NCBI GenBank assembly: GCA_902780535.1
Contig: CACZFT010000002.1
Location: forward strand, 1 to 44,604
DNA length: 44,604 bases
Source of the DNA: an uncultured Selenomonas sp.
Lineage (GTDB): Bacteria > Bacillota > Negativicutes > Selenomonadales > Selenomonadaceae
Reading direction: 5' to 3'
Shown: in pieces, positions 7,029 through 43,540 of the stretch
Layout of the letters: the number at the start of each line of letters is the position of its first letter
Position numbering within the stretch: the first letter of the stretch is position 1
The notes under the pieces: generated by a model
The model's input: the letters and a program-made list of their open reading frames with translations, nothing else
Told to the model about the DNA's origin: nothing
The model's database searches: none
Position numbers and translations under genes: made by a program

Positions 7029-7972
7029 CCCATTGCATCCTTCTCGATTTCCGCCGCCCAGTACCGCCCGATCTTCGCGAGCATCTGCAGCGCGTCCATC
7101 TTCAAGGCATCGGGGAACGCCGTCAGCACGGGAGCCGTCTCGAAATTCAGCGTCCCCGCGAAATGGATGGCGCGCAGGCCGCGCAGCAGGCCGTCCCAGT
7201 CCGTCGATGCCCGGTTCTCGCGCGTCTTCGCGAACGTATATGGAATCTGATGCAGGTCGTGGAGGCCGTCGTTGTCATGCAGATGCAGCACTTTGAGGCG
7301 CGGGCCGAGCGCCTCGAGGAACATCTCGAAATCCAGGCCGACGAGGTTCGCATGGCCCGAGTCAAAGCAGAAGCCGAGCACCTCGGCCCCATACTTCTCG
7401 TTCATGCGGTCAATGCGCTCGGCCGCCTTGTGCGCATCACAGCACGGCCCCTCGACGAGATGGCCGCCGAGGCCGCCATAGAGATTCTCGATGCACATCG
7501 TCACGCCGCATTCCACAGCGAGCGGCGCCATCGCATCGAGGAACGCTTCCGTCTGCGCCCACTCCGCTTCCTCCGAGCCGAGATATTCCCGGAGCTTGAA
7601 GCCATGCACGACGATGTTGTGGCAGCCGAAGAACTTCGCTACGCGCAGGCTCTTTGGCGCGACTTCCTCCCAGAGGTAGCGGTTCACGCGCTCCGAGGCC
7701 TGCGGCACATAGATGGGATACGGCATGTGCATCTGGTGGATGCGCACGCCGGCCGCTTCCGCCGCCCGCTTCTGCGGCCGAAAGAACGCTTCGAGCTCCT
7801 CCATGCTCTGGCTGAAGAAGCCGTTGAGCCGCTCCTGATAGATGTCGAGATTCAGGAGGTACTGGTTCAGCGAGAAGTCCGCACACGAAAAGCCGGCCGC
7901 GCGCATCGCCTGAAAGCCTGCTTCCGGATGCGCATCTTCCACGATGTTCTTCGTCTGGACGCTCAATTCCAT
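7025..7972 (-). CDS. Sugar phosphate isomerase/epimerase-like TIM-barrel protein
   Basis: A 315-aa xylose-isomerase-like TIM barrel (PF01261 type). The metal-site pattern is intact: the strand MCIENLYGG carries a Glu, CFDSGHAN an Asp and His, LHLHDNDGLHD a His/Asp pair, and LNFETAP the final Glu. Enzymes of this fold isomerise or epimerise sugars and polyols, so a step in making a rare sugar for the glycan is likely, but the substrate cannot be read from the sequence. The start at 7972 was chosen for GGGGGTGA just upstream; it lies 4 bp after the stop of the paralogous TIM-barrel gene. It ends in an ATGA overlap with the next GT41 gene. Confidence 0.82.
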   Translation of the reverse strand: MELSVQTKNIVEDAHPEAGFQAMRAAGFSCADFSLNQYLLNLDIYQERLNGFFSQSMEELEAFFRPQKRAAEAAGVRIHQMHMPYPIYVPQASERVNRYLWEEVAPKSLRVAKFFGCHNIVVHGFKLREYLGSEEAEWAQTEAFLDAMAPLAVECGVTMCIENLYGGLGGHLVEGPCCDAHKAAERIDRMNEKYGAEVLGFCFDSGHANLVGLDFEMFLEALGPRLKVLHLHDNDGLHDLHQIPYTFAKTRENRASTDWDGLLRGLRAIHFAGTLNFETAPVLTAFPDALKMDALQMLAKIGRYWAAEIEKDAMG

Positions 7973-7976
7973 GCGC

Positions 7977-9188
7977 TCACCCCCTCTTTTCCATTTTTTC
8001 GAGCACGACGCGCGGCGGACATTCGTCATTGAAATACGCGACGGGGTTCCGGAGCCCCATCTCGCGAAGCTGTGCCTCGATGTCGCGGTAGTAGATATTA
8101 CAGATGAAGATGGCGCAGTCCTCGGGCAGCTCCCGCAATGCCTCCGGCGGCTTCACGGGCAGGCCGTCGACCTCCGTGCCCCAGGTCGCAGGATTGTTGT
8201 CGCAGGTGAAGAGCGGCGGATACGCCTTGCCATAGTTCAGGAGATAGTTCCGGCACATGCGGCCCGCGCCGAAGAGCACGCGCTGCGGGTACTTCGCGAT
8301 TTCCCGCTCCATGCCGATCTGCCATGCGAGGTATTCGCCCGTCTTCTTCGCAAACGCGAGCAGCGCCGGCCGCAGGAGCGGCGGACAGGCCGCCGCCGTA
8401 TCGCGCAGCGCGAGCACGAGCAGACCGTCAAAGCCGATGGCCCGCAGGCCGCGGATCACGCCGAGCCAGTCCGCCTCGCTCTGGCCGCGCTCCGCCAGCG
8501 TATACGGCAGCAGCTGCTTCCGCCCGTCGCCATCCGTATCCGTCAGCAGCACGGCCTGCAGGCGCGGCCCGACCTCATGGATGAAGTCGTAGAGATCCTG
8601 CCCGCAGGCCCCGGCAGCATGCATGTCAAGACAGCAGCCGAACGTCCCCGCGCCAGCCGCCTCGTTCAGCGCATCCACCATGTCCCGCATTGCGCGGCCG
8701 CTCGCGAGCAGGCCGCGCACATAGTGGCCGTTCACGCTCCGCACGTCGTTCGTGAGCAGCAGCTGGATGCCCTGCGCCCGCGCCGCTTCCGCGAGGCGCA
8801 GGAAATACGCGCGGTTTTCGTCCCAGAGCGCACCACGCGCGATGCCTGCCAACATCGGATGAAGCACGAGCTTCCGGCAGCCCGCCGCCGCACAGTCGGC
8901 AAGCGTCTCTTTCGCGAGCGCTTCGATGCGGCCGGCGAGGTCCTCCCGCTTCGTTTCCGGCAGCAGGCGCGGCGCCATCGCCAGCGGCAGACAGCAGCCG
9001 CTGTCCTTCGCCGCCGCGAGGAACGCTTTCATGCCCGGCTCCGGCTTTCCCTTTTCCAGCAGGCGCGCGGGATGGCCGAGCGACGCATCCAGCATCACAG
9101 CCGAAAATCCGGCCGCCTGCATGTCCTTCATGCCCTGCTTCGGCCACCGCGCATCCACGATGCCCGCGGGCGCACACACGAAATCCAT
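7977..9188 (-). CDS. TIM-barrel isomerase-like protein with lost metal site, fused to a Rossmann-like domain
   Basis: A 403-aa protein. Residues 1-285 are a paralogue of the next TIM-barrel gene, with matching landmarks: LLTNDVRS against CIENLYGG, CCLDMHAAG against FCFDSGHAN, LLTDTDGDG against LHLHDNDGL, and LVLALRD against LNFETAP. At these landmarks the metal-binding Glu, His and final Glu are replaced (Thr/Asn, Thr and Ala), so it is unlikely to be a normal metal-dependent isomerase. The last 110 residues form a Rossmann-like module starting VLFGAGRMCRNYLLNYG. The start is ATG 9188 with GAGGTGG upstream; a GTG nine bases earlier has no ribosome binding site. Possibly a regulatory or structural partner of its neighbour. 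Confidence 0.7.
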   Translation of the reverse strand: MDFVCAPAGIVDARWPKQGMKDMQAAGFSAVMLDASLGHPARLLEKGKPEPGMKAFLAAAKDSGCCLPLAMAPRLLPETKREDLAGRIEALAKETLADCAAAGCRKLVLHPMLAGIARGALWDENRAYFLRLAEAARAQGIQLLLTNDVRSVNGHYVRGLLASGRAMRDMVDALNEAAGAGTFGCCLDMHAAGACGQDLYDFIHEVGPRLQAVLLTDTDGDGRKQLLPYTLAERGQSEADWLGVIRGLRAIGFDGLLVLALRDTAAACPPLLRPALLAFAKKTGEYLAWQIGMEREIAKYPQRVLFGAGRMCRNYLLNYGKAYPPLFTCDNNPATWGTEVDGLPVKPPEALRELPEDCAIFICNIYYRDIEAQLREMGLRNPVAYFNDECPPRVVLEKMEKRG

Positions 9189-9198
9189 GAATGCCACC

Positions 9199-11478
9199 TC
9201 ACAACAATTTCTTCCGGATCAGCGACTTGATGCGCGTCGACGACGTCGACTGCGTATAGGGGAAGAAGACGAGGTCTGCCCCCTGCCGCTTCAGGAACTC
9301 CCGCTCCGAGAGCCACGCGGCGTTCTCCTGATAATCACTGCCCGAAAACTGCACGTCGAAATGGAAGAGATGCCAGGCATCCCGCGTCCCTGCGAAGCTC
9401 AGCGGCAGGATCTCCGCCTGATCGACATAGCGGCAGGCGCGCACGATTTCCACGCGCTCCTCCTCGGGGATGAAAGGCTCCACCTGCTTGAACTTCCGCA
9501 CGCCCTCATCCGACACCACGCCGACGATCAGAAAGTCGCACTGCTCCTTTGCCCGCCGCAGGAGATTCAGATGACCTTTGTGGAAGAGGTCGAAGACGCC
9601 CGCGATATAGCCGACATGGTACTTCTTGGCAGGTGCCGCCTCCCCGCCTGCTTCGTCCGATGCTGCCGCCTCCACGGCCTTCCTGTCCAGCACGGATTTT
9701 GCCGAAGGATAGTCGCGCAGCGGATCGAAGCACGCATACGACGTGATGCCCATCTCTTCGAGCTGCCGCGCGATGGAAAGATACCCCTTCACGCAGATGA
9801 GCACCTTGAAAGAATCCTTCGGCAGCGTGCGCAGCACGTCCGGCGATTCGATGACGTGGCCGCGGAGCTCCTGCCCCTGCCGCGACGCCTGATTGTCCAC
9901 AAGATGCGCGACCGGATAGCGGCTGCCATACCCGTCGAGGAAGCGCTCAGCCCAATGCCCCGTGCCGAACACGACGAGCTGCCGCTCCTCGAGCCCCGAA
10001 AAAATATCGACGAAGAGTTCCTGATAGCGCTTCGCCGGATACGAGCAGCGGAGCCGGTTCGCATCGACGATGGCGCCATCGCGCTCATGCGGGCTGCGCA
10101 CGGCCATCATGTCCGAGACCTGCCGCAGGTTCGTGAAATACGCCTGAATCGTCTCGTTCCACTGCTTTTCCTTCTGCGCGAGGCCGTACCGCTCCATCAG
10201 CACATCGCGCGGCAGGAACCGCTGCATGGCCGGATCGGAACAGAGGAATCCGACGACGCGCATCAGGATGACGTTCACCGGGCAGTGCTCCATTACGAAC
10301 TCCTGATCGAAGAACACGAACGCCCCATCCTGATAGAACGCATTGATGGGAACCATGTCGAGATAGCCGTGCGCGAGCACGACGCCCGTGCCATCGCCTG
10401 CATCCTCCGCCTCATGCTCCGACGACGCGAGAACAACGTCGCGGAACGCATCGAGCGCCGCGAGGAACGCCGTGCGGTCGCCCTTCTTCAGGAGCGACTG
10501 GAAATATACCTGTGCCGTCGGCGCCGTGACGTACGGCATTTCATATACGCCATCCGCGAGACGGTCTTCGACCGTCCGGATGCCATGCGCGCGGAGTGCC
10601 GCATGATGCGCCGCGATTTCCTCGAGCCGCGCCTGCCCCTCGGGAAAGGCGGCCCGCTTCTCGACGCGCTCCGCCCGTCCTTCTGTGCCATGGACGATGG
10701 TGAAAAGCGCATCCTCTTTCCGGCGGTCGAGCGACGACGTCACATGCAGCACATCGGACGATGCGCCGTCCAGCGGGCACTCGATGAAATACGCATTCGC
10801 CATCGCATGGAACATGCCCTCCTCCACGAGCGGCCGGTACAGCCGCTCCTCGAGCAGGAACACATGCTCCGGCCGGTGATACGTCGGGAATACGCGATCC
10901 ACGAGCGATTCATGCGGCAGATAGCCCTCGGCATAGAGCAGCATCGGATGCGCGAGGTCCGACACCACGGCAAAGAACTTCTGCGCTGGAAAGCCAGCGG
11001 CGGAAAGCATCTGCCGGATCTCCGCCCGGCTGTACATCCGCCCGCGGAACTTGTCGGCGCCAATCTTGTAGACCTGCTGGTAATCGTCGATGCCGTCAAA
11101 CGAGCGATCCGTATAAATATCCGCGTCGCCGCAGAAATAGCGGAGCCCGAGGCGGTTGTTCATGCCGAGCAGCAGCCGCCCGTGCGGTGCGAGCAGCGCA
11201 TGGCATGCAGAAAGGAGCCCGACCGGCTCCTCCACCCGCTCGGGCTCCGCCACCATCAAGACCACATCAAATGCGCCGCCCGCCACGTTCCCAGCGCCCG
11301 AGAACACCTCGCTGCTCGTCGCCTCCACGACCGAAAGCGAGCGCTCGCGGAGCATCTGCGCCATCCCTGGCGCCTCCCCGACGACGAGCGCGCGGCCGCC
11401 CGCTGGAAACGCTTCCCACGCCGCCAGCCCCTGCGCCATGCGCTCCAAGAATTCCTGTTCATCCTTGCTCAGCTTCAT
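9199..11478 (-). CDS. Multi-domain methyltransferase / kinase-like / Rossmann / cytidylyltransferase
   Basis: A 759-aa cytoplasmic fusion protein. Residues 25-210 look like a SAM-methyltransferase (ALVVGEAPGMAQMLRE, FDVVLMVAEPERVEE, LLAPHGRLLLGMNN). Residues about 240-450 carry a kinase-like signature, VVLAHGYLDMVPINAF then FVFFDQEF, as in some aminoglycoside/choline-kinase-fold proteins; this is weak. Residues 498-590 are a Rossmann-like module (LVVFGTGHWAERFLDGYG). Residues 620-759 are a nucleotidyltransferase of the glycerol-3-phosphate/phosphoethanolamine type with the HxGH site (VFDLFHKGHLNLL) and the closing STSSTRIK. It probably activates a phosphorylated polyol or amino alcohol as a CDP derivative. 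ATG 11478 has GGAGG 6 bp upstream. Confidence 0.75.
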   Translation of the reverse strand: MKLSKDEQEFLERMAQGLAAWEAFPAGGRALVVGEAPGMAQMLRERSLSVVEATSSEVFSGAGNVAGGAFDVVLMVAEPERVEEPVGLLSACHALLAPHGRLLLGMNNRLGLRYFCGDADIYTDRSFDGIDDYQQVYKIGADKFRGRMYSRAEIRQMLSAAGFPAQKFFAVVSDLAHPMLLYAEGYLPHESLVDRVFPTYHRPEHVFLLEERLYRPLVEEGMFHAMANAYFIECPLDGASSDVLHVTSSLDRRKEDALFTIVHGTEGRAERVEKRAAFPEGQARLEEIAAHHAALRAHGIRTVEDRLADGVYEMPYVTAPTAQVYFQSLLKKGDRTAFLAALDAFRDVVLASSEHEAEDAGDGTGVVLAHGYLDMVPINAFYQDGAFVFFDQEFVMEHCPVNVILMRVVGFLCSDPAMQRFLPRDVLMERYGLAQKEKQWNETIQAYFTNLRQVSDMMAVRSPHERDGAIVDANRLRCSYPAKRYQELFVDIFSGLEERQLVVFGTGHWAERFLDGYGSRYPVAHLVDNQASRQGQELRGHVIESPDVLRTLPKDSFKVLICVKGYLSIARQLEEMGITSYACFDPLRDYPSAKSVLDRKAVEAAASDEAGGEAAPAKKYHVGYIAGVFDLFHKGHLNLLRRAKEQCDFLIVGVVSDEGVRKFKQVEPFIPEEERVEIVRACRYVDQAEILPLSFAGTRDAWHLFHFDVQFSGSDYQENAAWLSEREFLKRQGADLVFFPYTQSTSSTRIKSLIRKKLL

Positions 11479-11498
11479 AGATTCCTCCGTACGCATGC

Positions 11499-12227
11499 TT
11501 ACCCGATATACATCTCCGGCTCATTCATCATGATGTCCGTGATGCCCTGCGCCTCAAGCGGCGCAACATCGAGCCGCTTCCCCGTCGGCCGCTCGGGATA
11601 GAGATGGCCGCCCATCCAGGCGCGGACTGCGATGCCCTGGAGCCGCGCCGGCGTCTCGTCGACGGACTGCCAGTAGGGATGGATGTCCGTCGCGCCGCAC
11701 CCGCCCGCGATGTAATAGAGGCAGTCCGACGCATGCGTCGCGAGGACGGCCAGACGAGCCGACAAGTCAAGCGCCCGAAGCCGCGCGAGCGACTTCGGGT
11801 AGAACGTAGAATAAATGACCTGATCGGCAACGCCTTTTTTGTGCACGAGATCCAGGAGCTCCTGCTCCATGCCCTCGTACGGGATGCTGCTGTTCTTGAG
11901 CTCGAGGTTCAGCAGCATCCCCGTGCGCAGGCGCGGCAGAAGCAGGTCGATGAGCTCTTCTGCCGTCAGGATGTGCTCCCTGCGCCCGTTTCCGGCATCA
12001 ATGGAAAGCTGCCTGAGCTCCTTCAGGCTGTAGTCCTTGACCCAGCCCGTACCATCCGTCGTACGGTCGACGCGCTCATCGTGGATGATGACGTGCACGC
12101 CGTCCCGCGTGCGCTGCACGTCCGTCTCGATGCCCGTGAGGCTCCTGAGGCTCATGGCCTTCTCGAACGATGTCTGCGTATTTTCCGGATAGCGCTGGCT
12201 GCAACCGCGATGCGCCCAGTATTTCAT
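11499..12227 (-). CDS. Glycerophosphodiester phosphodiesterase
   Basis: A 242-aa GDPD-family hydrolase (UgpQ-like), about the usual length for the cytoplasmic form, without a signal peptide. It hydrolyses glycerophosphodiesters to sn-glycerol-3-phosphate plus an alcohol. Signature residues are visible: WAHRGCSQRYPENTQ (HR and E-N), GIETDVQRTRDG (ExD metal site), IIHDERVDRTTDGTG (catalytic His) and LLNLELK. The gene overlaps the upstream cytidylyltransferase-oxidoreductase by 4 bp (ATGA). Between two cytidylyltransferases it may supply glycerol-3-phosphate or trim a glycerophosphate decoration. That role is inferred from context. Confidence 0.92.
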   Translation of the reverse strand: MKYWAHRGCSQRYPENTQTSFEKAMSLRSLTGIETDVQRTRDGVHVIIHDERVDRTTDGTGWVKDYSLKELRQLSIDAGNGRREHILTAEELIDLLLPRLRTGMLLNLELKNSSIPYEGMEQELLDLVHKKGVADQVIYSTFYPKSLARLRALDLSARLAVLATHASDCLYYIAGGCGATDIHPYWQSVDETPARLQGIAVRAWMGGHLYPERPTGKRLDVAPLEAQGITDIMMNEPEMYIG

Positions 12228-13609
12228 TCCTTTGTTCCCTTCTCTTCTTCCGCCGCATCGGCTTTCGGCGGATGCACTTCATTGAACTTTTCCATGAGGC
12301 CTGCCAGAGCGATGGACTCCTGATCCGACAAGCTCTTCTCCTGCGACTCAGGATGATCGTCGAGTCGGTGGAGGAACTCGCTGATCTCGTAGCGGAGGCC
12401 GGAGTCCAGATATGGCTCCGAGAATCGCTCGATGTCGTTCGGATCCTCGCGATGAATCTCGAAATAACTCATGAGCCACCACGGCGCGGGCACGACGATG
12501 TAGCCCGTCGTGCCGCTGATCAGCAGGCGGCCGTCCGACTTCACGCCGAGGCCGCACGTTGCCGTCGCGAACCCGTTCTTGTAGCGCAGGCTGACCTTCG
12601 TGAACTGGTCGATGCCATTCTCGTCATCGATGCTCTCGAAGCGGATGTCTTCATAGTCGAGCCCGAAGATCTTGAGAATCGGCATGAGGACATAGCTGCC
12701 GAGCTCGCGGAAACTGCCGCCGAAGCGCCGGTCCGTCAGTTCGCGGCTCTCGGGATTCTCGAGCTTCGTGAAGCACGCCTCGATGTTCCGCACCGTGCCG
12801 ATGCGGCCGCTCATCACGATGCCGAGCAGCTTGTGGAAGCATGGGCAGTAGCATGTCTTGATGCCCTCCATGAGCACGAGATTCTTTTTCGCCGCGAGCG
12901 CGTAAAGTTCTTCCGCCTGCGCCTTTTCGAGCACCATCGGCTTCTCGCAGAGGACGTGCTTTCCATGCTCGAGCGCCGCCTTCGCATAATCATAGTGATA
13001 CTGGTGCGGTGCAGCGACATAAACGAGGTCCACATCATCGAAGAGTTCTTCGACCGTATCGTACGCCTGGATGCCCCAGTCCTTCGCGAGGCGCTCCGCA
13101 CTCGCCTTATGCGGGTTGTAAACGCCCTGATGATTCACGCCGCTCACGCGCGTCGCCTCCAGCATGAAGCGGTTCGTGATGCGGCCCGTCCCGATGACGC
13201 CGATGCGCTGGATGTGGCGCATCTTCTCGCGCAGCATCGTGCTCGAGACATCCTTCGTGCGCTCGAGGTAGACGACCTTGCAATACTCCTTCAGATAGTC
13301 GAACTTGCCGCGCCAGTCCGAGCCGATGGCGAAGATGTCGATGCCGTACTTCTTGATGTCCGAAAACTTCTGTCCCTGGACTTCCTCGATGATGATCTTG
13401 TCAGCAAAGCCCGTCTTGCGCACATTCTCGATGCGCGTCATGAGCGGATCGACGACATTGAGCTTGCCGCGCGCCTTGTCGAAGCTCTCTGTCGTGACGC
13501 CGACGATCAGATAGTCGCCGAGCTCCTTCGCACGCTGCAAAAGGCGGTAATGACCCTCGTGAAAGAGGTCGAACGTTCCATATGTAATTACTTTCGTCAA
13601 ATCGATCAC
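12224..13609 (-). CDS. Glycerol-3-phosphate-type cytidylyltransferase fused to Gfo/Idh/MocA oxidoreductase
   Basis: A 461-aa bifunctional protein. Residues 1-130 resemble TagD (glycerol-3-phosphate cytidylyltransferase): ITYGTFDLFHEGHYRLL with the HxGH site, IGSDWRGKFDYLKEYC, and YLERTKDVSSTMLRE. Residues 135-461 are an NAD(P)-dependent oxidoreductase of the Gfo/Idh/MocA family with the dinucleotide site IGVIGTGRITNRFM and the EKPMVLEKAQAEEL motif holding the conserved Lys. A CDP-polyol is the likely product of the first domain, with the oxidoreductase making or altering its carbon skeleton; the order is unknown. The start is GTG 13609, overlapping the previous stop by 4 bp (GTGA). Confidence 0.82.
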   Translation of the reverse strand: MIDLTKVITYGTFDLFHEGHYRLLQRAKELGDYLIVGVTTESFDKARGKLNVVDPLMTRIENVRKTGFADKIIIEEVQGQKFSDIKKYGIDIFAIGSDWRGKFDYLKEYCKVVYLERTKDVSSTMLREKMRHIQRIGVIGTGRITNRFMLEATRVSGVNHQGVYNPHKASAERLAKDWGIQAYDTVEELFDDVDLVYVAAPHQYHYDYAKAALEHGKHVLCEKPMVLEKAQAEELYALAAKKNLVLMEGIKTCYCPCFHKLLGIVMSGRIGTVRNIEACFTKLENPESRELTDRRFGGSFRELGSYVLMPILKIFGLDYEDIRFESIDDENGIDQFTKVSLRYKNGFATATCGLGVKSDGRLLISGTTGYIVVPAPWWLMSYFEIHREDPNDIERFSEPYLDSGLRYEISEFLHRLDDHPESQEKSLSDQESIALAGLMEKFNEVHPPKADAAEEEKGTKE

Positions 13610-15873
13610 TTCATTTCTTCTGTTCTTCTGCCGTCCGTCTGTGCAAGATGCTGCCGGAGCCATGCGTAAATCTTTTCGCCACAGGTGCCGACATTCGCCG
13701 CACTTTCGCCATAGGCCGCGCGCTCCGCATCCGCATCATAGGGTTTGCCCGGGAGGCGGCCGTCAAGGAGTTCCGGCAGCGTATGGAGCGCATTCTCCTC
13801 GCAGCCATACTGAAGCCACTCCGTGAGGCGGTCGAAGCCGGCATCATGTGCACGGACCTCTTCCAGATCGAAGTGAAGCGGAACCTCCTGGCACGCTTTC
13901 GTCGCGACATCGACACGATAGAGACGCCGCGTATTCCAGTTCATATAGTCATACATCGTTCCGCTGACCCGGCGCGTGAAGACGCCGTGGGAACCCGTGT
14001 AAAAATAATCTCCTGCATCCGCGAGGAGCTCCTCCGGCGGCTGCCAATCCGCAGCCTTTCCTGTCTCCTTGTCAATGACGACGAAATGACTGCCCCAGTT
14101 CGGTGCAAGGACGACTTCCTTCTCCGTGAAAGCCGCACTGCTGAACGCCTGCCCGTTGCATGGCGCCTGGAAGACAGGATGGAAGCACGAGAATCCTTCG
14201 ATGGATGCATCATACGTCCGCAAGCTCCCCTTCTGCGGATTCCAGCGGAGCACCTCCGTCCCCGCGAGCGGCAGGAGATAGAGCTCATCGCCATCCGCCG
14301 CGATGGCATTGATGCCTTCCTTCCCCTGGCCGAGCCGCACGATCTGGTGGTCGAGCGTGTCCTCCGCAAGCACGAGGACCTCGGGGCGGAGAGGCGAAGC
14401 GAGATAGAGCAGGCCGTCCTTCAGCAGCGAGCCGCCGAAGAACCAGTCCACATCCGAAAGATGCGCGGCGAACCTCTGCTGGACGCCCTGAACCTGCACG
14501 ACAGCCTCCGTTTGAAGATCGATGCGGATGAGATACGGATACCGCAGAGGCAGCAGGAAGAGATAGCGGTCATCAGCGAGCGCGCCGGCGAAGCGGGTGG
14601 AATATGGCATATCGGCCTTCGGCAAATCAATATGACGCAACGTGCCATGGTCGAAGACAACGACCTCCTCCGCGTTCCCCGGGCAGACAAAAACCTTCCC
14701 ATAGCGTTCGTACGCACCGAGGAAGTAGCCGCCCGACGTATACCGCGAAAGCTGCGCGGCGAAATGGCAGGCGCCATCTGCATCCCGCTTCCAGAGCTGG
14801 TTCGTCGGCATCACGATCCAGTCCGCCGCTTCCCCCGTCGGGAACAGGACAGGGAGCATGCTCCGCCAGTCACCGGGCTTCGGCGGCTCGTGCAGCCGAT
14901 TATTGAAGAGAAAGAGAGGCTTGCCCGCTGCGCCGAACAACGCCGTCACGCTCGTACCGGAATCACCGAGATAGACATCCGAGAGCGCAATGGTCGGCTC
15001 GATTTCCGGCGTCGTGTCATAGATGCCGATGTCCTCGCGCACGAACATGTCCCGCAACGCTTCATAAGTGGGAACAACATCCGGGCGCATGCGCTGGATC
15101 GTCGATTCCAAGAGCGGATGCGGACGCCAGATCAGACAGGCATCCTGGCGGCCGCGAAACGTTTCAAACACATAGCGCATCTTCTGCAAGAACCGGCCGG
15201 TATCCGCCAGGAAGCCGCTGAGGCTCGTATTATAAAAATACACCGTGCGCCCCGCAAGCTTCGCCTTCCAGCTTTCCGGAGGCTCCGGCGGATTCTCTGC
15301 GAGGCGCACGACCTTATCGAGCTTCGGCGAACCGAGTGGCAGGAGCTTCGACTGCACCCGCTGTGCAAAATAAGGAATCGAGCTCTTTCCCTGTGCGATA
15401 ATGTAATGGAACTGGTCATACGACGGAATGTCCCGCTGAAACTCGCCCATGCCGCCCGACGTCACATAATACGGCACATAGACGAGGCAGTCCGTATACG
15501 CACGGAGCTTGTCCGAATCATACGCCGCATCGATGCGCGTCACGAGATTCGTCCCATCATAGGGATTGTGCACGAAGATGGCATCGGGATGAAGAGATGC
15601 GAGATTGACATCGCCATGCGGCACCGCATGGACATACGAAGGGAACGCATCGATTTCATCATGCCACCGGATGGGCTTTCCCTCCCCGTTGAGATCCGCA
15701 TACGGGATGGGCACGACCATCGTGCAGCAGTGCTCGCAATCCTTTGCAGCAGCCATCCAGATGCTCTCAAGGCTGTCCCACATCGATGCCTTGTACGGCA
15801 AAAAGACGACAAGCTTCTTGCCAGCCGCCCGCTCCTGCATGACTTCCTGCCATCCCTGTCCCTGTAGCTCCAT
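13606..15873 (-). CDS. CDP-glycerol-type glycerophosphotransferase with C-terminal propeller-like domain
   Basis: A 755-aa protein. The first 370 residues resemble the catalytic part of TagF-family CDP-glycerol glycerophosphotransferases, which move polyol-phosphate from CDP-polyol to a sugar: LPLGSPKLDKV (about 178-188), LIWRPHP (248-253), and YLGDSGTSVTALFGAAGKP (301-319) with the Asp/Ser site. Residues 380-650 contain repeated beta-strand blades (GKVFVCPGNAEEVVVFD, RYPYLIRIDLQ, DGLLYLASPLRPEVLVL, DGDELYLLPLAG) that look like a beta-propeller, probably a carbohydrate or protein docking platform. No transmembrane helix is seen, so it acts on a cytoplasmic acceptor. A good promoter lies at 15911-15940 and the next gene overlaps by 4 bp. 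Confidence 0.78.
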   Translation of the reverse strand: MELQGQGWQEVMQERAAGKKLVVFLPYKASMWDSLESIWMAAAKDCEHCCTMVVPIPYADLNGEGKPIRWHDEIDAFPSYVHAVPHGDVNLASLHPDAIFVHNPYDGTNLVTRIDAAYDSDKLRAYTDCLVYVPYYVTSGGMGEFQRDIPSYDQFHYIIAQGKSSIPYFAQRVQSKLLPLGSPKLDKVVRLAENPPEPPESWKAKLAGRTVYFYNTSLSGFLADTGRFLQKMRYVFETFRGRQDACLIWRPHPLLESTIQRMRPDVVPTYEALRDMFVREDIGIYDTTPEIEPTIALSDVYLGDSGTSVTALFGAAGKPLFLFNNRLHEPPKPGDWRSMLPVLFPTGEAADWIVMPTNQLWKRDADGACHFAAQLSRYTSGGYFLGAYERYGKVFVCPGNAEEVVVFDHGTLRHIDLPKADMPYSTRFAGALADDRYLFLLPLRYPYLIRIDLQTEAVVQVQGVQQRFAAHLSDVDWFFGGSLLKDGLLYLASPLRPEVLVLAEDTLDHQIVRLGQGKEGINAIAADGDELYLLPLAGTEVLRWNPQKGSLRTYDASIEGFSCFHPVFQAPCNGQAFSSAAFTEKEVVLAPNWGSHFVVIDKETGKAADWQPPEELLADAGDYFYTGSHGVFTRRVSGTMYDYMNWNTRRLYRVDVATKACQEVPLHFDLEEVRAHDAGFDRLTEWLQYGCEENALHTLPELLDGRLPGKPYDADAERAAYGESAANVGTCGEKIYAWLRQHLAQTDGRRTEEMK

Positions 15874-15910
15874 ATCACCGATGCCTCATCTTTCTCGCAA
15901 AATTTCTTCC

Positions 15911-15940
15911 ATTATATCATGCAGCGGCCATTGCCTGCAA
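15911..15940 (-). promoter_or_regulatory. Internal promoter ahead of the CDP-polyol phosphotransferase gene
   Basis: On the minus strand: -35 TTGCAG (15935-15940), 18-bp spacer and a perfect TATAAT (15911-15916) preceded by TG, i.e. an extended -10 (TGATATAAT). It lies in the largest gap of the run, 89 bp between the HAD phosphatase and the phosphotransferase gene, and could drive 15873 down to 5457 independently of the upstream genes. Confidence 0.65.
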
Positions 15941-15962
15941 CGACGCCAAAATCTCGTGCAGC

Positions 15963-16580
15963 TCAGGATAACTGACGGAGCTGTCTGCACAACGCCGCTT
16001 CATCCAGGGCGAGATCGTCCGCTACAGACAGCACGCCCGGCACGGGATCATGCGTCAGTGCCGATGCGATGGAAACATCCGCCACGCGCATCGCTTCGAC
16101 ATCGTTGTTGCCATCACCGATGAAGACCACGCGCCGGCCAAGCTCCTGATACCGTTGCACCACATCTTCCTTGCAAAGAATCTGTGTGATATCTGCCACA
16201 CGATTGTCCTCGACAACGGCTTCCGATGCATCACAGGCACATGCCAGCCTTGTCACAAGCTCCTCGATCCATGGCCGGAGATTCCCCGTCGCGATGCTGC
16301 ATTGCTCCTTGTGCGCACGGATAAACTGCACGACCCCCTCGTGGAGCTTGACATGAGCCAGCAGATGCGCAACTTCATCAACAGGAAGCGTGCCCAGGAT
16401 GCGGACACGCCAGGCGAGAGATTCTGCAAACGGAATATTCCCGAGCACCGTTTGCTGCGTCAGTGCCTTGATTTCTTCCGTCACGCCAAAGTGCTTCGCA
16501 ATGAGCGGCAGTGTTTCTTCCCGCGTGATCGTCCCGTCGAGGTCAAAGATGAAATGCGTTGGTTTGCCAAAAATATTCAA
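15963..16580 (-). CDS. HAD-family phosphatase (phosphoserine phosphatase-like)
   Basis: A 205-aa haloacid-dehalogenase-fold phosphatase close in layout to SerB. Motif I is HFIFDLDGTITREETL with the nucleophile Asp13 and acid/base Asp15; motif II lies in CSIATGNL; motif III/IV is VVFIGDGNNDVEAM. It probably removes phosphate from a small phosphorylated metabolite in the pathway. The start is TTG 16580, which overlaps the stop of the sulfatase-fold gene by 4 bp (TTGA) and has AGGAAGAGG upstream; the residues before it belong to the overlapping gene. Its place beside a cytidylyltransferase and a CDP-polyol phosphotransferase resembles the phosphate-modification genes of C. difficile flagellin (from memory). 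Confidence 0.85.
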   Translation of the reverse strand: MNIFGKPTHFIFDLDGTITREETLPLIAKHFGVTEEIKALTQQTVLGNIPFAESLAWRVRILGTLPVDEVAHLLAHVKLHEGVVQFIRAHKEQCSIATGNLRPWIEELVTRLACACDASEAVVEDNRVADITQILCKEDVVQRYQELGRRVVFIGDGNNDVEAMRVADVSIASALTHDPVPGVLSVADDLALDEAALCRQLRQLS

Positions 16581-18730
16581 GCCTCTTCCTTTCCGCCGCG
16601 GCGTTCCTTCCGCTCTGCCGTGCCAAACCACTCAGGCCGCGCTTCGCGCATCGACGGCCACTGGTCGCCGCCGCGATCGATCGCCGCCGTGTGCGCGCGC
16701 AGGACGCTGAGGAATTCTTCCTGCAGTGCCGCGTCCTCGATGCGTTCATGACCGCCAGGAGCGTCGGGACAGTTCCGCCGGTAGAGTTCCGTGTCGATGT
16801 TCCTCATGTCGATTGTCCCATCCTCATCGACAAATTCGTGCGTCTTCATCTGGAACTCATGATCGAGCGTGCGGATGGCGCAGCGGTAGACCTGCCCCGG
16901 ATAGAGCGTGTTGCTGATGGCATAGCGCCGCGCCTGTCCGCCGAGTGCCGCCGGGAGATTGCTGTCCGCCGTCTCCGGCACGTCGAATCCCGCTTCTTTG
17001 GCAAGGATCGCATAGAGGTCGAGGCTGCTCGTGATCTCGTCGCGCACGATGCCGCGCGCGGGGATGCCGGCACCGCGTGCCATGAGCGCCGCGCCGACAT
17101 GATGGTCGCTCAAGAGATACGGCGCATCGTCAAAGATCGACGCTCCGTGATCCGAATAGAGATTCACGACGTAGTCCCCCGGCGCGTAATGCGTTTCCAG
17201 ATAGTCAAACAGCACGCCGAGGCTGCGATCCGTCGCATGGATGCCCGCGAGATTCGCATCGCGATAGACATCATAGCCTGAGATATAGACGCTCGCATCC
17301 GTGCTGTTGCCGCCGGCGAGGCGCTTCTCGAGCGGGAGCTTCGTCTGCGTAGAGGGTGGCAGGTGGTACGTCCGCGCCGACCAGACATGGACATCGAGCG
17401 TGTGGAGCATCAGGAACTGGTCGCATTCGTCAAAGGCTTCCAGCTGACGGATGGCTCGCTCGACACCGAGATATATCGGCGTGCAATAGCCGTTGCCGAT
17501 GATGCGGTCGAATCCGCGCGAAGCTCCTGAGCAGAGGCCTGTGTTCATGCCGAGCAGGTTCGCGCAGTAGTAGCCGAGCTTCTTCATCTGCTCCGATATC
17601 GTCACGTACTCCGGCGCGAGCTCATACCCCGCCTGCTCGTTGAAGATCTGGTTGTGATGCGGATACATGCCCGACTCAATCGCAGCAAACGACGGGAACG
17701 TGTATTCGCTCGTCGAGAAATTCTGATCAAAGATGACGCCCTGGCTGAAAAAGCGCAAGATATTCGGCACATCGCGGTAGCCGCGATCCCGCACGAGGCT
17801 CCAGCTCAGCGTATCGACGAGGATGTTCAGGACGACGGGGTGGCGGCGCGGGCTGTGGCGGAGCTCGACGGGCGCACCGAGGACGAACGGCGTTTCCGTC
17901 GTCGCCGTAATCCGCGTCGGCTGCTCGACGCGGTAGAAATTGAAGCTCCACTTGCCGAGCGCGCTCGTGTCGTCATCGCCGAGGCCGAGCGGGCTGCCGT
18001 CCCCTTTCGCGAATCGGACGGACTGCCCTGCCGTCTTGCCCGCGAGCGGCACGAGCACGGGCGCGCCGTCCGGCTCGATCGTCACGTCGCGCACTTCCTG
18101 CGCCTTCATGGTGTCAAAGACGAACTCCGCGCCGCAGCGATTGACAAAGTCCGCGTTTCCCCTGCCCTGTTCCGCAATCCAGCTCTTCGCTTCGAGGTCC
18201 TCGCGTTCCTCATAGCAGCCGACCCAGAACCAATATTCCGACCGCGCATAGAACCGCGGCCAGAACTCTCCGACATAGAGATCGCGCCCCGACTGGAATT
18301 TCCCGTCCTCGACGCGCACGCGCGCCTTTGCAAACGGCGCATAATTGCCGATACCGAGCCCGAGTGACAGCAGGTTCATCTGCACATCTCCGACCGGCCC
18401 TTCATAAAGCTCGAGATCGAGCGGCACCTTGTAAAACTTCTTGCAGAGCCCTTCGAAATACGCAAGGCTCTGCACATCCCCGAGTGCCTTGCAGCAGCGC
18501 ACGAAGAGCCGCCAGACCTCGAAATTCAGCGGCCGCTTCGAAAATGCTTGCTGCGCATAAGCCATCGCGCGCATCGCATCGCCATGAAAGAGCTCATAGG
18601 CGCCGAGAAAGACCTCGGGCGCTTCCGAGAACGGATGCGCTTCGCCGTAGTCCCTGGCCAGCTGCACGTATTCATCATCAAATTCTTCCTGCTCCCGCTT
18701 CGCGAGAAGGCTCGCAAATGTTTTTGTCAT
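16577..18730 (-). CDS. Sulfatase-fold phosphotransferase or phosphodiesterase with TPR-like N-terminus
   Basis: A 717-aa protein. Residues 1-110 are helical and repeat-like; residues 298-640 are an alkaline-phosphatase-superfamily (sulfatase, PF00884) domain. The metal and nucleophile landmarks are VVLNILVDTLSW (Asp306), EYTFPSFAAIESGMYPHHN (Thr344 where sulfatases have Cys/Ser), NLYSDHGASI (Asp527, His528) and LSDHHVGAALMARGAGIP (His543/544). A Thr nucleophile argues against a formylglycine sulfatase and for a phosphodiesterase or phosphoglycerol/phosphoethanolamine transferase. No signal peptide or membrane helix is seen, unlike LTA synthase, so it should act in the cytoplasm. ATG 18730 overlaps the preceding GT2 stop and follows GGAGG. 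Confidence 0.75.
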   Translation of the reverse strand: MTKTFASLLAKREQEEFDDEYVQLARDYGEAHPFSEAPEVFLGAYELFHGDAMRAMAYAQQAFSKRPLNFEVWRLFVRCCKALGDVQSLAYFEGLCKKFYKVPLDLELYEGPVGDVQMNLLSLGLGIGNYAPFAKARVRVEDGKFQSGRDLYVGEFWPRFYARSEYWFWVGCYEEREDLEAKSWIAEQGRGNADFVNRCGAEFVFDTMKAQEVRDVTIEPDGAPVLVPLAGKTAGQSVRFAKGDGSPLGLGDDDTSALGKWSFNFYRVEQPTRITATTETPFVLGAPVELRHSPRRHPVVLNILVDTLSWSLVRDRGYRDVPNILRFFSQGVIFDQNFSTSEYTFPSFAAIESGMYPHHNQIFNEQAGYELAPEYVTISEQMKKLGYYCANLLGMNTGLCSGASRGFDRIIGNGYCTPIYLGVERAIRQLEAFDECDQFLMLHTLDVHVWSARTYHLPPSTQTKLPLEKRLAGGNSTDASVYISGYDVYRDANLAGIHATDRSLGVLFDYLETHYAPGDYVVNLYSDHGASIFDDAPYLLSDHHVGAALMARGAGIPARGIVRDEITSSLDLYAILAKEAGFDVPETADSNLPAALGGQARRYAISNTLYPGQVYRCAIRTLDHEFQMKTHEFVDEDGTIDMRNIDTELYRRNCPDAPGGHERIEDAALQEEFLSVLRAHTAAIDRGGDQWPSMREARPEWFGTAERKERRGGKEEA

Positions 18731-19623
18731 ACTGCCTCCGCCGATTCCCTTCGAACCCGTTCCATCCACGTCTGCGCAACGCGCAGCATAGCCGTCACCT
18801 GAATTCCCTGCACGCGACGCAGTGCCTCGGGATGCTCTTTGAAAAATGACAGCCTCCCGAGATTTTCTCCAATGCATGCGACAACGCGCGGAATTTCTTC
18901 TGCAACACGCAGAACATCCTCAAGCGTCTTCCGGCCACGCAGAATGGACGTGTCAGAAAGGCGCTGCACATAGTAAAAAAATGGCGTCCGCACATAGACG
19001 CGCGCTCGGAAAAAGCATTCTGTCAGAAAAACACTGTCCTCATGACACATGAGCTCGGGAAACTGGAGGTGCTCCCGTGCGAGGAACGCGCGGCGATACA
19101 GACGGCTGCCAACGTTGAACGGTGCCTCCTGGTACCATGGCATCCGCTCGGCCAGATTCTGAGAGAGACCATACGGCTCACTGGACTGCTTTGGATCTTC
19201 CGCCAAAGGATGCAGGACGTTCTCCCCCTCCCGTAGCAGATACCGCCCCATCGACTCGACGACATCCGCTTGCGTGACCTCCGCGAGGCGGAACATCTTT
19301 TCCAAGGCATCCACTCCGATGAAATCATCGCTGTCAAGGAACGCTGCATATTTCCCATGTGCCAGCGCGAGACCGCGGTTGCGCGCCGCACCCGCGCCCG
19401 CCTGTGCCTGCCGGACAAGATGAAAGCGCGAATCTGTCCCATACGTTTCTGTGCAGAACTCTGCCGAGCCGTCCGTCGAGCCGTCATCGATGCAGAGAAT
19501 CTCAAAATCCTGGAAGGTCTGTGCGAAAATGCTGTCGATGCATTCTTCGATATATGCCCGCCGATCATGCATCGGCACGATGACCGAGATGCTCGGGGGA
19601 TTCGTGGCGCTCCCCTGCTTCAT
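18727..19623 (-). CDS. Family 2 glycosyltransferase (GT-A)
   Basis: A 298-aa inverting GT2 enzyme: SVIVPMHDRRAYIEECIDSI at the N-terminus, EILCIDDGSTDGS, AGAGAARNRGLALAHGKYAAFLDSDDF with the DxD-like motif, and a conserved ED (CHEDSVFL) further on. The length is normal and there is no membrane segment. ATG 19623 overlaps the upstream TPR-glycosyltransferase by 4 bp (ATGA), preferred over a GTG/ATG a few codons upstream. Predicted to add one sugar of the flagellin glycan; donor and linkage cannot be told from sequence. Confidence 0.88.
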   Translation of the reverse strand: MKQGSATNPPSISVIVPMHDRRAYIEECIDSIFAQTFQDFEILCIDDGSTDGSAEFCTETYGTDSRFHLVRQAQAGAGAARNRGLALAHGKYAAFLDSDDFIGVDALEKMFRLAEVTQADVVESMGRYLLREGENVLHPLAEDPKQSSEPYGLSQNLAERMPWYQEAPFNVGSRLYRRAFLAREHLQFPELMCHEDSVFLTECFFRARVYVRTPFFYYVQRLSDTSILRGRKTLEDVLRVAEEIPRVVACIGENLGRLSFFKEHPEALRRVQGIQVTAMLRVAQTWMERVRRESAEAV

Positions 19624-20891
19624 TCCGCCACCTTCTTTTCCATCCATGCCTTTGTCGACGAGGAATCATTTGCATGCGCCAGATAATAGGATTCATCCTC
19701 GGGGAGATGATCTGAATCGTAATACCATGGCAGGTGGCGGAACGTGTACGGTCCCGCCATGCGGATAGCCGGACCACGGTGATAGAAGCGCGCATCCCGG
19801 TAGAGCGCGAACGTCGTATCGACATTCGCATAGTACGCATCGCCGCCGAGCGGCACATGGTAGAACCGGCGCTCGTTCTTTGCCTTCCGTTCCCGGTATT
19901 CATACGTGAGGTCTTCATAGGCCAGCGCCGCGCCGACCTTCGAGATGAGCGGATGCTCCTGGAGCACGCGCAGGAACGCCTGCAGGAACTGCGCAGGACA
20001 TGCTTCGGTCGGCAGGACATCCGGATCCGTGTAGACATACGGTGTCCGGATGTCCAGGAGCTCGAGCAGGCGGCTCGCCCAGAGCGCCGTATGGCCGAGG
20101 TTCGACCCGAGGCGCACGACGCGCACGCCCTCTGCGCGGATGGTTTCGTAGTAGCGGAGCAGCGGAGGATATGTCGAAGCGTTGTCGATGAGGATGATGT
20201 TGTCATAGCCGGACGTGCACAGCCATGTGACGAGGCGCGAAAGGCAGTCCACGCGGTCGCGGCAGTTGATGAAGATCGGCAGATGACGCACGGCCTCCCA
20301 GTCCTCCGCCTCGATTGTCATGGGAAACGTCAGCCCCTCATGAATCGGCGGCCGCGCCACGCCTTCCGGCGCAAGCATCTGCGCGAGCGCCACATCACGG
20401 TTCACGGCTGCCTCTGGGAGATCCGCCCGCTGCTCGAGCGCCTTCCCATAGGCGACAACGGCAGGCAGGAACGCGCCCATATGATACGCCGCATTGCCGA
20501 TGGCCAGCCAGGCTGCCGCATCGCCCGTGAACCGCGCGAGATGGTCGCCAAAGAGCTCGCGCGCCCTCCCGAAATCACCGGCGCGCAGCGCGAGGACGCC
20601 GCGGAAGAAATGGCCTTCCGGGAACCACGCGCTCTTGTAGAGCAGTCCCTGCGGAAACGCGCGCAGATAGTAGTCCGCGAGGCGGTCGTCGCCGCGCTCC
20701 ATAGCGAAGATCGCCGCCGCGAGGACGACCATCAGGCGGCCGTCTTCGAAAAACGCAAGCGCCTCCGTCTCCTCCACTTCCGGATGGGCAGAGGCTAGCT
20801 GGACGGCCGCGAGCACGCAGGCCGCGCATCCATCGAGATCTCCCGCTTTCTCAGCCTCGCGATAAGCCGCATAGATGTCTTGAGACTCCAT
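19620..20891 (-). CDS. TPR-glycosyltransferase fusion (GT-A type)
   Basis: A 423-aa protein. Residues 1-190 hold TPR-like helical repeats (for example GDFGRARELFGDHLARFTGD, followed by AAWLAIGNAAYHMGA). Residues 205-423 are a glycosyltransferase-like domain: PIFINCRDRVDCLSRLVTWL, NIILIDNASTYPPL, VVRLGSNLGHTALW and a YVYTDPDVLP segment whose DPD fits the metal-binding DxD. Such short GT-A proteins with this INCRDR opening occur in polysaccharide clusters. TPRs suggest docking onto the protein acceptor. The start (20891) lies 2 bp after the previous stop. Confidence 0.78.
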   Translation of the reverse strand: MESQDIYAAYREAEKAGDLDGCAACVLAAVQLASAHPEVEETEALAFFEDGRLMVVLAAAIFAMERGDDRLADYYLRAFPQGLLYKSAWFPEGHFFRGVLALRAGDFGRARELFGDHLARFTGDAAAWLAIGNAAYHMGAFLPAVVAYGKALEQRADLPEAAVNRDVALAQMLAPEGVARPPIHEGLTFPMTIEAEDWEAVRHLPIFINCRDRVDCLSRLVTWLCTSGYDNIILIDNASTYPPLLRYYETIRAEGVRVVRLGSNLGHTALWASRLLELLDIRTPYVYTDPDVLPTEACPAQFLQAFLRVLQEHPLISKVGAALAYEDLTYEYRERKAKNERRFYHVPLGGDAYYANVDTTFALYRDARFYHRGPAIRMAGPYTFRHLPWYYDSDHLPEDESYYLAHANDSSSTKAWMEKKVAE

Positions 20892-20893
20892 TT

Positions 20894-22246: not shown

Positions 22247-22250
22247 GATT

Positions 22251-23372: not shown

Positions 23373-23404
23373 TTCACATGTTCTCCTTTTCCGACATCTC
23401 CGCC

Positions 23405-24655: not shown

Positions 24656-24678
24656 GATCTCAACCTGCTTTCAAGGAA

Positions 24679-25929: not shown

Positions 25930-25963
25930 GAAAAAATAAGTCCCTCTTCAAACTTGTCCCTTC

Positions 25964-29166: not shown

Positions 29167-29189
29167 GATCATGCGCCTCCCGCAGGTTC

Positions 29190-31168: not shown

Positions 31169-31186
31169 GCAACATTTCCTTTCTTC

Positions 31187-34147: not shown

Positions 34148-34199
34148 GACCTCGTCCCTTCCAGAGCCTTTTGAAAAACGTCAAGGAATCATGCGCACA

Positions 34200-40137: not shown

Positions 40138-40159
40138 GAAACTTCCCCTTTATTCCCCT

Positions 40160-43470: not shown

Positions 43471-43509
43471 ATGATATATGCTCCTTGAAAAAACGAAGCC
43501 CGCATAAAC

Positions 43510-43526
43510 TGCAATCGTAAATTGCA
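43510..43526. promoter_or_regulatory. Inverted repeat upstream of the first glycosylation gene
   Basis: TGCAAT-N5-ATTGCA, perfect 6-bp arms, about 40 bp upstream of the ATG at 43470. It could be an operator or part of the promoter. No convincing -35/-10 or sigma-28 sequence was found in the 209-bp gap, so the assignment is weak. Confidence 0.3.
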
Positions 43527-43540
43527 AACGTCATGCTTGT

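What the first reader, a model, noticed from the sequence alone, without database searches (positions are those of the whole stretch)
9199..18730. Six-gene CDP/phosphate block in a flagellin glycosylation island: a possible polyol-phosphate glycan decoration
Seen: TagD-like cytidylyltransferase fused to an oxidoreductase, a second cytidylyltransferase in a multi-domain protein, a CDP-glycerol-type phosphotransferase, an HAD phosphatase, a sulfatase-fold protein with Thr nucleophile and a glycerophosphodiesterase, in six adjacent genes. Known (from memory): C. difficile type A flagellin glycan is phosphate-linked and uses a phosphatase, a nucleotidyltransferase and a CDP-glycerol-type transferase. 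Inferred: a teichoic-acid-like glycerophosphate or related unit is built on flagellin. The two extra fusions and the sulfatase-fold enzyme go beyond the known set.
Basis: partly seen in the sequence, partly recalled or inferred. Interest (0 to 1): 0.82.

Follow-up and report, generated by a model that had tools for sequence, protein, structure and literature searches.

The report
Phosphate-decorating enzymes in flagellin glycosylation island
A run of six genes in a gut Selenomonas-type bacterium very probably builds CDP-activated phospho-alcohols and hangs them on the sugars of its flagella, and its three-gene core recurs in many flagellated gut bacteria, which gives a testable and so far undescribed branch of phosphate-containing flagellin decoration.

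Summary
The six genes are real. They lie at 9199-18730, minus strand, in a cluster of glycosyltransferase genes that ends in a truncated, frameshifted flagellin gene. They are not one conserved unit. The conserved core is three overlapping genes: a GT-B enzyme with a beta-propeller (no Pfam family; fold like TagF and UDP-GlcNAc 2-epimerase), a TagD-like cytidylyltransferase fused to a Gfo/Idh/MocA oxidoreductase, and a GDPD. In 80 named loci, mostly Lachnospiraceae, the first two are adjacent in about 72; LicD or PF04464 phosphotransferases are common neighbours. Relatives of the GT-B enzyme go with flagella: 24 of 24 positive Lachnospiraceae genomes have flagellin, against 100 of 200 sampled (P=1e-8). 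The multi-domain cytidylyltransferase belongs to a second module with two TIM barrels. The SerB-like HAD gene is strain-specific. Elsewhere the sulfatase-fold protein sits beside a PEP mutase-cytidylyltransferase fusion (8 of 16 loci, one in this genome), so it is a candidate phosphonyl/phosphoryl transferase.

Best reading: a CDP-polyol (glycerol-like) phosphate is made and transferred to flagellin O-glycans. Glycerol itself is unproven. A C. difficile type A-like phospho-amino-acid decoration remains a serious rival. Verdict: partly supported; new variant of a known kind.

The parts
13606..15873 (-). CDPg: GT-B domain (about aa 18-330) plus beta-propeller (about aa 335-660); candidate CDP-alcohol phosphotransferase; core gene 1
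   Evidence: No Pfam or NCBIfam hit. AF2 model pLDDT 84, pTM 0.83. VIA-align Z about 22-23 to TagF 3l7i-m and, tied, to UDP-GlcNAc 2-epimerases; Z 21.0 to Bcs3 8a0c; propeller Z about 19-20. WRPHPL invariant in 11 homologues.
12224..13600 (-). CytGfo: TagD-like cytidylyltransferase fused to Gfo/Idh/MocA oxidoreductase (TTG start at 13600 by homology); core gene 2
   Evidence: Profile match 2.4e-38 to B. subtilis TagD 1coz over the whole domain; HxGH, GSDWxGKFD, RTxxxSST, EKP and GTGRI motifs conserved in 11 homologues; same fusion in about 75 named loci.
11499..12227 (-). GDPD: glycerophosphodiester phosphodiesterase; core gene 3
   Evidence: PF03009 1e-29; HRG, PENT and HDE motifs aligned to 2pz0 at 1.4e-27; next to CytGfo in 38-44 of 80 loci.
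9199..11496 (-). KinCyt: methyltransferase-fold domain, kinase-like middle domain (unconfirmed), Rossmann domain, C-terminal cytidylyltransferase like ECT/CCT/TagD
   Evidence: structure model and fold matches; D380-x4-N385 and D397 conserved; module KinCyt-TIM2-TIM1 in other genomes.
7977..9197 (-). TIM2: xylose-isomerase-like TIM barrel with a C-terminal Rossmann domain shared with KinCyt
   Evidence: PF01261 3.4e-8; shares aa 506-586 of KinCyt.
7025..8029 (-). TIM1: xylose-isomerase-like TIM barrel
   Evidence: PF01261 1.1e-17; co-conserved with KinCyt.
15963..16580 (-). HAD: SerB-like phosphatase (TTG start at 16580); accessory
   Evidence: TIGR00338 81 bits, under its cut-off of 144; 1f5s at 2.4e-13; found beside the core only in G006.
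16577..18730 (-). Sulf: alkaline-phosphatase-superfamily enzyme with Thr344 nucleophile, no signal peptide evident; candidate phosphoryl/phosphonyl transferase or phosphodiesterase
   Evidence: PF00884 2e-19; Thr at the formylglycine position; homologues beside PEP mutase-cytidylyltransferase fusions at 8 of 16 other loci.
18727..43527 (-). Rest of the island: GT2, GT41, GT9/TibC-like and GT1 glycosyltransferases, methyltransferases, two radical SAM/SPASM proteins, an epimerase, DUF5672
   Evidence: Pfam.
43680..44602 (-). Flagellin, C-terminal part, frameshifted near its 3' end and cut by the contig end
   Evidence: Translation in two frames, stop codon at 43680.

Best explanation
The block is a phosphate-decoration cassette of a flagellin O-glycosylation island. 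Shown: the gene content, domain folds and motifs; a conserved core CDPg-CytGfo-GDPD; a tight link of CDPg relatives to flagellated genomes; frequent neighbours that use or make CDP-alditols. Inferred, in order. (1) The Gfo/Idh/MocA half of CytGfo reduces a keto- or aldose-phosphate (or its CDP form) to a polyol phosphate, and the TagD-like half joins it to CTP, giving CDP-polyol; a glycerol-like unit is the first guess. (2) GDPD supplies or trims glycerophosphate-type diesters. (3) CDPg, a cytosolic GT-B enzyme, moves the phospho-polyol from CDP onto a sugar of the flagellin O-glycan, its propeller binding the glycoprotein. (4) KinCyt with the two TIM barrels makes a second, different CDP-alcohol. 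(5) Sulf transfers or trims a phosphoryl or phosphonyl group. Because donor and transferases look cytosolic, the unit is probably added to flagellin before export, one unit at a time, and not built as a teichoic-acid polymer.
For: CDPg and CytGfo are adjacent in about 72 of 80 named loci, with GDPD next in 38. LicD occurs in 44 loci, PF04464 in 29, and an IspD-like enzyme over the D-ribitol-5-P cytidylyltransferase cut-off in the set. CytGfo matches TagD at 2.4e-38, both active-site motifs kept. CDPg N-domain ties TagF at Z about 22.7 and reaches Bcs3 at Z 21. Flagellin co-occurrence: 24/24 against 100/200, P=1.2e-8; 40/40 named CDPg genomes; 60 positives of 136 Selenomonadaceae, none among the six without flagellin. 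Distances of 2-41 kb to flagellin on 13 contigs; FlgE-type gene beside the block in G019. TagD is known in one Geobacillus flagellin island (PMC5109656). Between window and G006 the N-terminal half of CDPg is least conserved (56-72%), as expected if it fits different acceptors.
Against: CDPg is below every Pfam/NCBIfam threshold, and its fold ties with epimerases. CytGfo is below the TIGR01518 cut-off. The WH motif that is invariant in neighbouring PF04464 enzymes was not seen in CDPg, and the profile-profile match was weak. In G012 and G033 no flagellin lies on the block's contig. Co-occurrence is not corrected for phylogeny, and most of the 24 hits are the short form; for the long form it is 7/7 (P=0.007). 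No glycan data exist for this organism in what I could read.
Confidence: 0.55

Rival explanations
1. Type A/type b-like decoration: the unit is a phospho-(N-methyl)amino acid or amino alcohol, not a polyol. KinCyt supplies methyltransferase and ECT-like cytidylyltransferase, HAD acts like CD0241, CDPg like CD0244.
For: KinCyt's cytidylyltransferase is closest to ethanolamine- and choline-phosphate enzymes and is fused to a methyltransferase-fold domain. HAD is SerB-like, as CD0241 is said to be (PMC10714395). CDPg resembles TagF as CD0244 does. Standalone KinCyt-type cytidylyltransferases lie beside PdxA in 5-6 Lachnospiraceae loci.
Against: The core that is conserved with flagella is the TagD-Gfo fusion and GDPD, absent from the C. 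difficile and PAO1 clusters as described in the papers read. HAD and KinCyt are not part of the core. Motif I of the KinCyt methyltransferase is degenerate.
Confidence: 0.2
2. The block decorates another surface glycan (LPS, capsule or cell wall) and is only lodged near flagellin.
For: In G012 and G033 the block is on contigs without flagellin, with GDP-sugar, LicD or PF04464 genes. C. jejuni uses a CDP-glycerol transferase in its capsule (PMC8949473).
Against: All 24 CDPg-positive genomes of 200 Lachnospiraceae have flagellin while only half of the family do; that family is Gram-positive, so LPS is excluded there. The window island ends in flagellin and carries TibC-like and GT41 cytosolic protein glycosyltransferases. 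No ABC exporter, flippase or polymerase was seen among the window genes scanned.
Confidence: 0.15
3. Phosphonate route: the donor is a CMP-phosphonate (AEP or HEP), with Sulf as the phosphonyl transferase.
For: Sulf homologues stand beside PEP mutase-cytidylyltransferase fusions, PhnW and NTP transferases at 8 of 16 loci, including C107 of this genome. KinCyt's cytidylyltransferase also fits the Fom1 HEP cytidylyltransferase (5x3d, Z 17.9).
Against: No PEP mutase gene in the window. The closest Sulf homologues (77-79%) are not next to PEP mutase.
Confidence: 0.07

Closest known systems
C. difficile type A flagellin glycan cluster CD0240-CD0244 (PMC10714395)
   Same: Cytidylyltransferase, TagF-like transferase, SerB-like HAD and methyltransferase in a flagellin island; phosphodiester decoration proposed through a CDP donor.
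   Different: Here the conserved core is a TagD-Gfo/Idh/MocA fusion, a GT-B-propeller enzyme and a GDPD; methyltransferase and second cytidylyltransferase are fused; a Thr-type sulfatase-fold enzyme is added. Homology to CD0242/CD0244 was not tested directly.
P. aeruginosa PAO1 b-type flagellin cluster PA1088-PA1091 (PMC11833859)
   Same: Phosphodiester-linked unit on a deoxyhexose of flagellin; transferase joined to another domain.
   Different: There the unit is N,N-dimethylthreonine; no oxidoreductase or GDPD is described.
Geobacillus thermoglucosidans DSM 2542 flagellin island with tagD and pgs (PMC5109656)
   Same: TagD-type enzyme within a flagellin glycosylation island.
   Different: Standalone TagD with Pgs; lipid modification was proposed; no Gfo fusion, GT-B-propeller or GDPD.
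TagD/TagF wall teichoic acid enzymes and Bcs3 (H. influenzae b)
   Same: CDP-alditol donor chemistry; GT-B fold of the transferase.
   Different: Those build polymers; family thresholds are not met here.
Phosphonyl tailoring (PntC and Ppm fusions, PMC6697681)
   Same: PEP mutase-cytidylyltransferase fusions beside Sulf homologues.
   Different: No such fusion in the window; sulfatase-fold partners were not mentioned in the passages read.

Membership tests
C. difficile type A / PAO1 type b clusters | Cytidylyltransferase of the phosphocholine/phosphoethanolamine type | tested here: met
   KinCyt C-terminus: ECT 8.4e-22, CCT 1.7e-10.
C. difficile type A / PAO1 type b clusters | TagF-like phosphotransferase (CD0244) | tested here: inconclusive
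   CDPg GT-B fold Z about 22.7 to TagF, tied with epimerases; no direct comparison with CD0244 was possible.
C. difficile type A / PAO1 type b clusters | SerB/ThrH-like HAD conserved with the cluster | tested here: not met
   SerB-like HAD is present but accompanies the core only in the window and G006.
C. difficile type A / PAO1 type b clusters | Phospho-N-methylthreonine on flagellin | not testable with these tools
   Needs mass spectrometry.
Glycerol-3-phosphate cytidylyltransferase (TagD, TIGR01518) | Equivalog score of 165.4 bits | tested here: not met
   112.1 bits.
Glycerol-3-phosphate cytidylyltransferase (TagD, TIGR01518) | HxGH and RTxxxSxT active-site motifs | tested here: met
   Conserved in 11 homologues.
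CDP-glycerol glycerophosphotransferase (PF04464) | Pfam gathering score | tested here: not met
   No PF04464 hit for any of 11 CDPg homologues at E up to 1.
CDP-glycerol glycerophosphotransferase (PF04464) | RxHP motif in the C-terminal Rossmann half | tested here: met
   WRPHPL invariant; aligned to RLHPQL.
Wall teichoic acid pathway | Linkage-unit, polymerase and ABC-export genes nearby | tested here: not met
   None among the 30 window ORFs scanned against Pfam.
Sulfatases (formylglycine) | Cys or Ser at the formylglycine position | tested here: not met
   Thr344.
Phosphonate biosynthesis (Ppm) | PEP mutase in the cluster | tested here: not met
   None in the window; one at G000:C107 beside a second Sulf.
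Flagellin glycosylation island | Flagellin gene next to glycosyltransferases | tested here: met
   Flagellin C-terminus at 43680-44602, truncated and frameshifted.

The most novel reading that the evidence does not exclude
Flagellated gut Firmicutes share an undescribed flagellin decoration system in which a fused oxidoreductase-cytidylyltransferase makes a new CDP-polyol, a GT-B-propeller enzyme transfers it to flagellin glycans, and a sulfatase-fold Thr enzyme, a relative of phosphonate-cluster proteins, serves as the missing transferase for CMP-phosphonate or CDP-alcohol donors.
Probability: 0.2. Interest if true: 0.85.

Novelty: new variant of a known kind. Interest (0 to 1): 0.62.

Why it matters
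Among the systems compared here, phosphodiester decorations of flagellin are known from C. difficile and P. aeruginosa; in C. difficile they are needed for normal motility. A core present across Lachnospiraceae and Selenomonadaceae would make this chemistry common in gut commensals, whose flagellins are immune ligands. It also names a concrete candidate (the Sulf family) for the unknown step after CMP-phosphonate formation.

Tried and rejected
Tried without result: Pfam, NCBIfam and PDB sequence searches for CDPg. hhalign of CDPg against neighbouring PF04464 proteins gave probability 1.7%, although the RxHP and [GT]DxxS regions are collinear. The kinase-like middle domain of KinCyt found no kinase by profile and none in the listed fold matches; its kinase reading rests only on D-x4-N and DQE motifs, and relatives L069-L071 have N in place of that D. 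The Selenomonas sputigena flagellin O-glycan paper (Rath et al., known from memory) is not held. Rejected: the six genes as one conserved unit; a plain sulfatase (Thr344); a full teichoic-acid polymer pathway.

Full report
Setting. The window is a whole 44,604-base contig (C2) of a 2.94 Mb, 223-contig Selenomonadaceae genome. About 30 genes run on the minus strand: an SBP gene, glycosyltransferases of families GT2, GT41, GT9/TibC-like and GT1, methyltransferases, two radical SAM/SPASM proteins, an epimerase, DUF5672, and at the right end the C-terminal part of a flagellin. The flagellin reads in one frame to 43778 and continues in another to a normal flagellin end with stop at 43680; the rest lies beyond the contig.

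The six genes. All named genes exist at the stated place. CytGfo (start at TTG 13600 by homology) has an N-terminal domain that matches Bacillus TagD along its whole length (2.4e-38 with the family profile) and a Gfo/Idh/MocA domain with nucleotide-binding and catalytic EKP motifs invariant in 11 homologues. It scores 112 bits for the G3P cytidylyltransferase equivalog, cut-off 165, so its substrate is open. KinCyt has a methyltransferase-fold N-terminus with degenerate motif I, a kinase-like middle, a Rossmann domain shared with TIM2, and a cytidylyltransferase closest to ethanolamine-phosphate enzymes. GDPD keeps its active-site motifs. HAD is SerB-like. Sulf has Thr at the formylglycine position and an SDHG metal motif.

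CDPg. No family model matches it. An AlphaFold2 model from 11 homologues (pLDDT 84, pTM 0.83) shows a GT-B domain and a beta-propeller. VIA-align puts TagF (Z 22.3-22.7, 320-325 residues, rmsd 3.7-5.4) level with UDP-GlcNAc 2-epimerases, and the CMP-bound Bcs3 multienzyme at Z 21.0. So the GT-B fold is firm; phosphotransferase function is inferred from the genes around it.

Conservation. A tblastn map shows the full order only in G006, whose island lacks GT2a and the 24.6-31.2 kb stretch. Other Selenomonadaceae keep CDPg-CytGfo-GDPD as one unit and KinCyt-TIM2-TIM1 as another. CDPg directly precedes CytGfo at 72 places and GDPD directly follows at 38. Frequent neighbours are LicD (44 loci), GT2, PF04464 (29 loci), IspD-like and MobA-like nucleotidyltransferases, and an FGGY kinase with an Fe-ADH. 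The IspD-like enzyme exceeds the D-ribitol-5-phosphate cytidylyltransferase cut-off. This neighbourhood is that of CDP-alditol use.

Link to flagella. In 200 evenly drawn Lachnospiraceae, 24 have CDPg relatives at E<=1e-100 and 100 have flagellin; all 24 are among the 100 (hypergeometric P=1.2e-8; for seven long forms P=0.007). In 136 Selenomonadaceae, 60 are positive and none of the six flagellin-less genomes is (P=0.03). On 13 contigs the distance to the nearest listed flagellin is 2-41 kb, median 25 kb (positive cases only). In G019 a FlgE-type gene is close by. Exceptions: G012 and G033 have no flagellin on the block's contig, with LicD and GDP-sugar genes or PF04464 instead. Relatedness among genomes was not corrected for.

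Sulf. Its family occurs in 13 of 60 relatives with a distribution of its own. At 8 of 16 other loci, including C107 of this genome, homologues lie beside a cytidylyltransferase-PEP mutase fusion (PEP mutase 400 bits, cut-off 320), often with PhnW and an NTP transferase, and in arrays of up to four. The steps after CMP-phosphonate formation are called enigmatic in PMC6697681, where LicD-like proteins are the named neighbours. A cytosolic Thr-type alkaline-phosphatase-fold enzyme is a new candidate; this is inference from neighbourhood.

Mechanism and rivals. The best-supported reading is synthesis of a CDP-polyol by CytGfo and its transfer by CDPg to flagellin glycans, with GDPD as supplier or editor, and KinCyt and Sulf adding a second kind of phosphorus group. 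The steps after gene content and association are inferred. A type A-like phospho-amino-acid (PMC10714395, PMC11833859) is the main rival because KinCyt unites methyltransferase and ECT-like cytidylyltransferase domains. Prior art for TagD in a flagellin island exists in Geobacillus (PMC5109656). No paper held links LicD and cytidylyltransferase with flagellin.

By-product. In 19 of the 80 loci a TnpB-like gene lies 230-620 bases (once 1.4 kb) upstream of CDPg; all three RuvC catalytic positions are substituted in the alignment, and most carry a conserved non-coding segment between the two genes, as expected of an RNA-guided TldR-type repressor. It is not in the window.

Noticed in passing
L135:5858-7276, L152:7979-9292, L131:7972-9285, L102:7664-8992 and 15 more loci: Nuclease-dead TnpB-like (TldR-like) proteins lie directly upstream of CDPg in 19 of 80 loci, most with a conserved non-coding segment (CGGCATTAGAAG...GGGTATGCCAAGACC...GGGAGCGAAG) between the genes. 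This suggests RNA-guided control of a flagellin-glycan operon; the TldR flagellin paper read (PMC13418256) does not mention glycosylation.
   Followed up: partly
window 43680-44602: Flagellin gene with a frameshift before its last 40 or so codons and cut by the contig end; assembly error or pseudogene not decided.
   Followed up: partly
window 13606-15873 against L028:2064-4331: CDPg is 81% identical to its G006 counterpart while its neighbours CytGfo and HAD are 99-100%; the difference is greatest at aa 51-200 of the GT-B N-terminal half (56-72%). TibC shows the same (82%).
   Followed up: partly
L097:15599-17073, L099, L101, L102, L130: A standalone KinCyt-type cytidylyltransferase is followed by a PdxA-family dehydrogenase (4-hydroxythreonine-4-phosphate dehydrogenase, over the TIGR00557 cut-off for L101) near LicD.
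   Followed up: no
L089:15107-17140 and five other loci: MobA-like nucleotidyltransferase fused to a HisC/CobD-type PLP enzyme near the core; might make a CDP-amino alcohol from an amino acid phosphate.
   Followed up: no
window 18740-19619 and 24647-31195: GT2a and a stretch with GT1, methyltransferase, epimerase, two radical SAM/SPASM genes and GT2c are missing at the same places in G006, an island otherwise about 91-96% identical in DNA.
   Followed up: partly
L162:7427-16048 (G035), L167:3976-10389 (G014): Tandem arrays of four and three Sulf-family genes next to PEP mutase-cytidylyltransferase fusions.
   Followed up: partly
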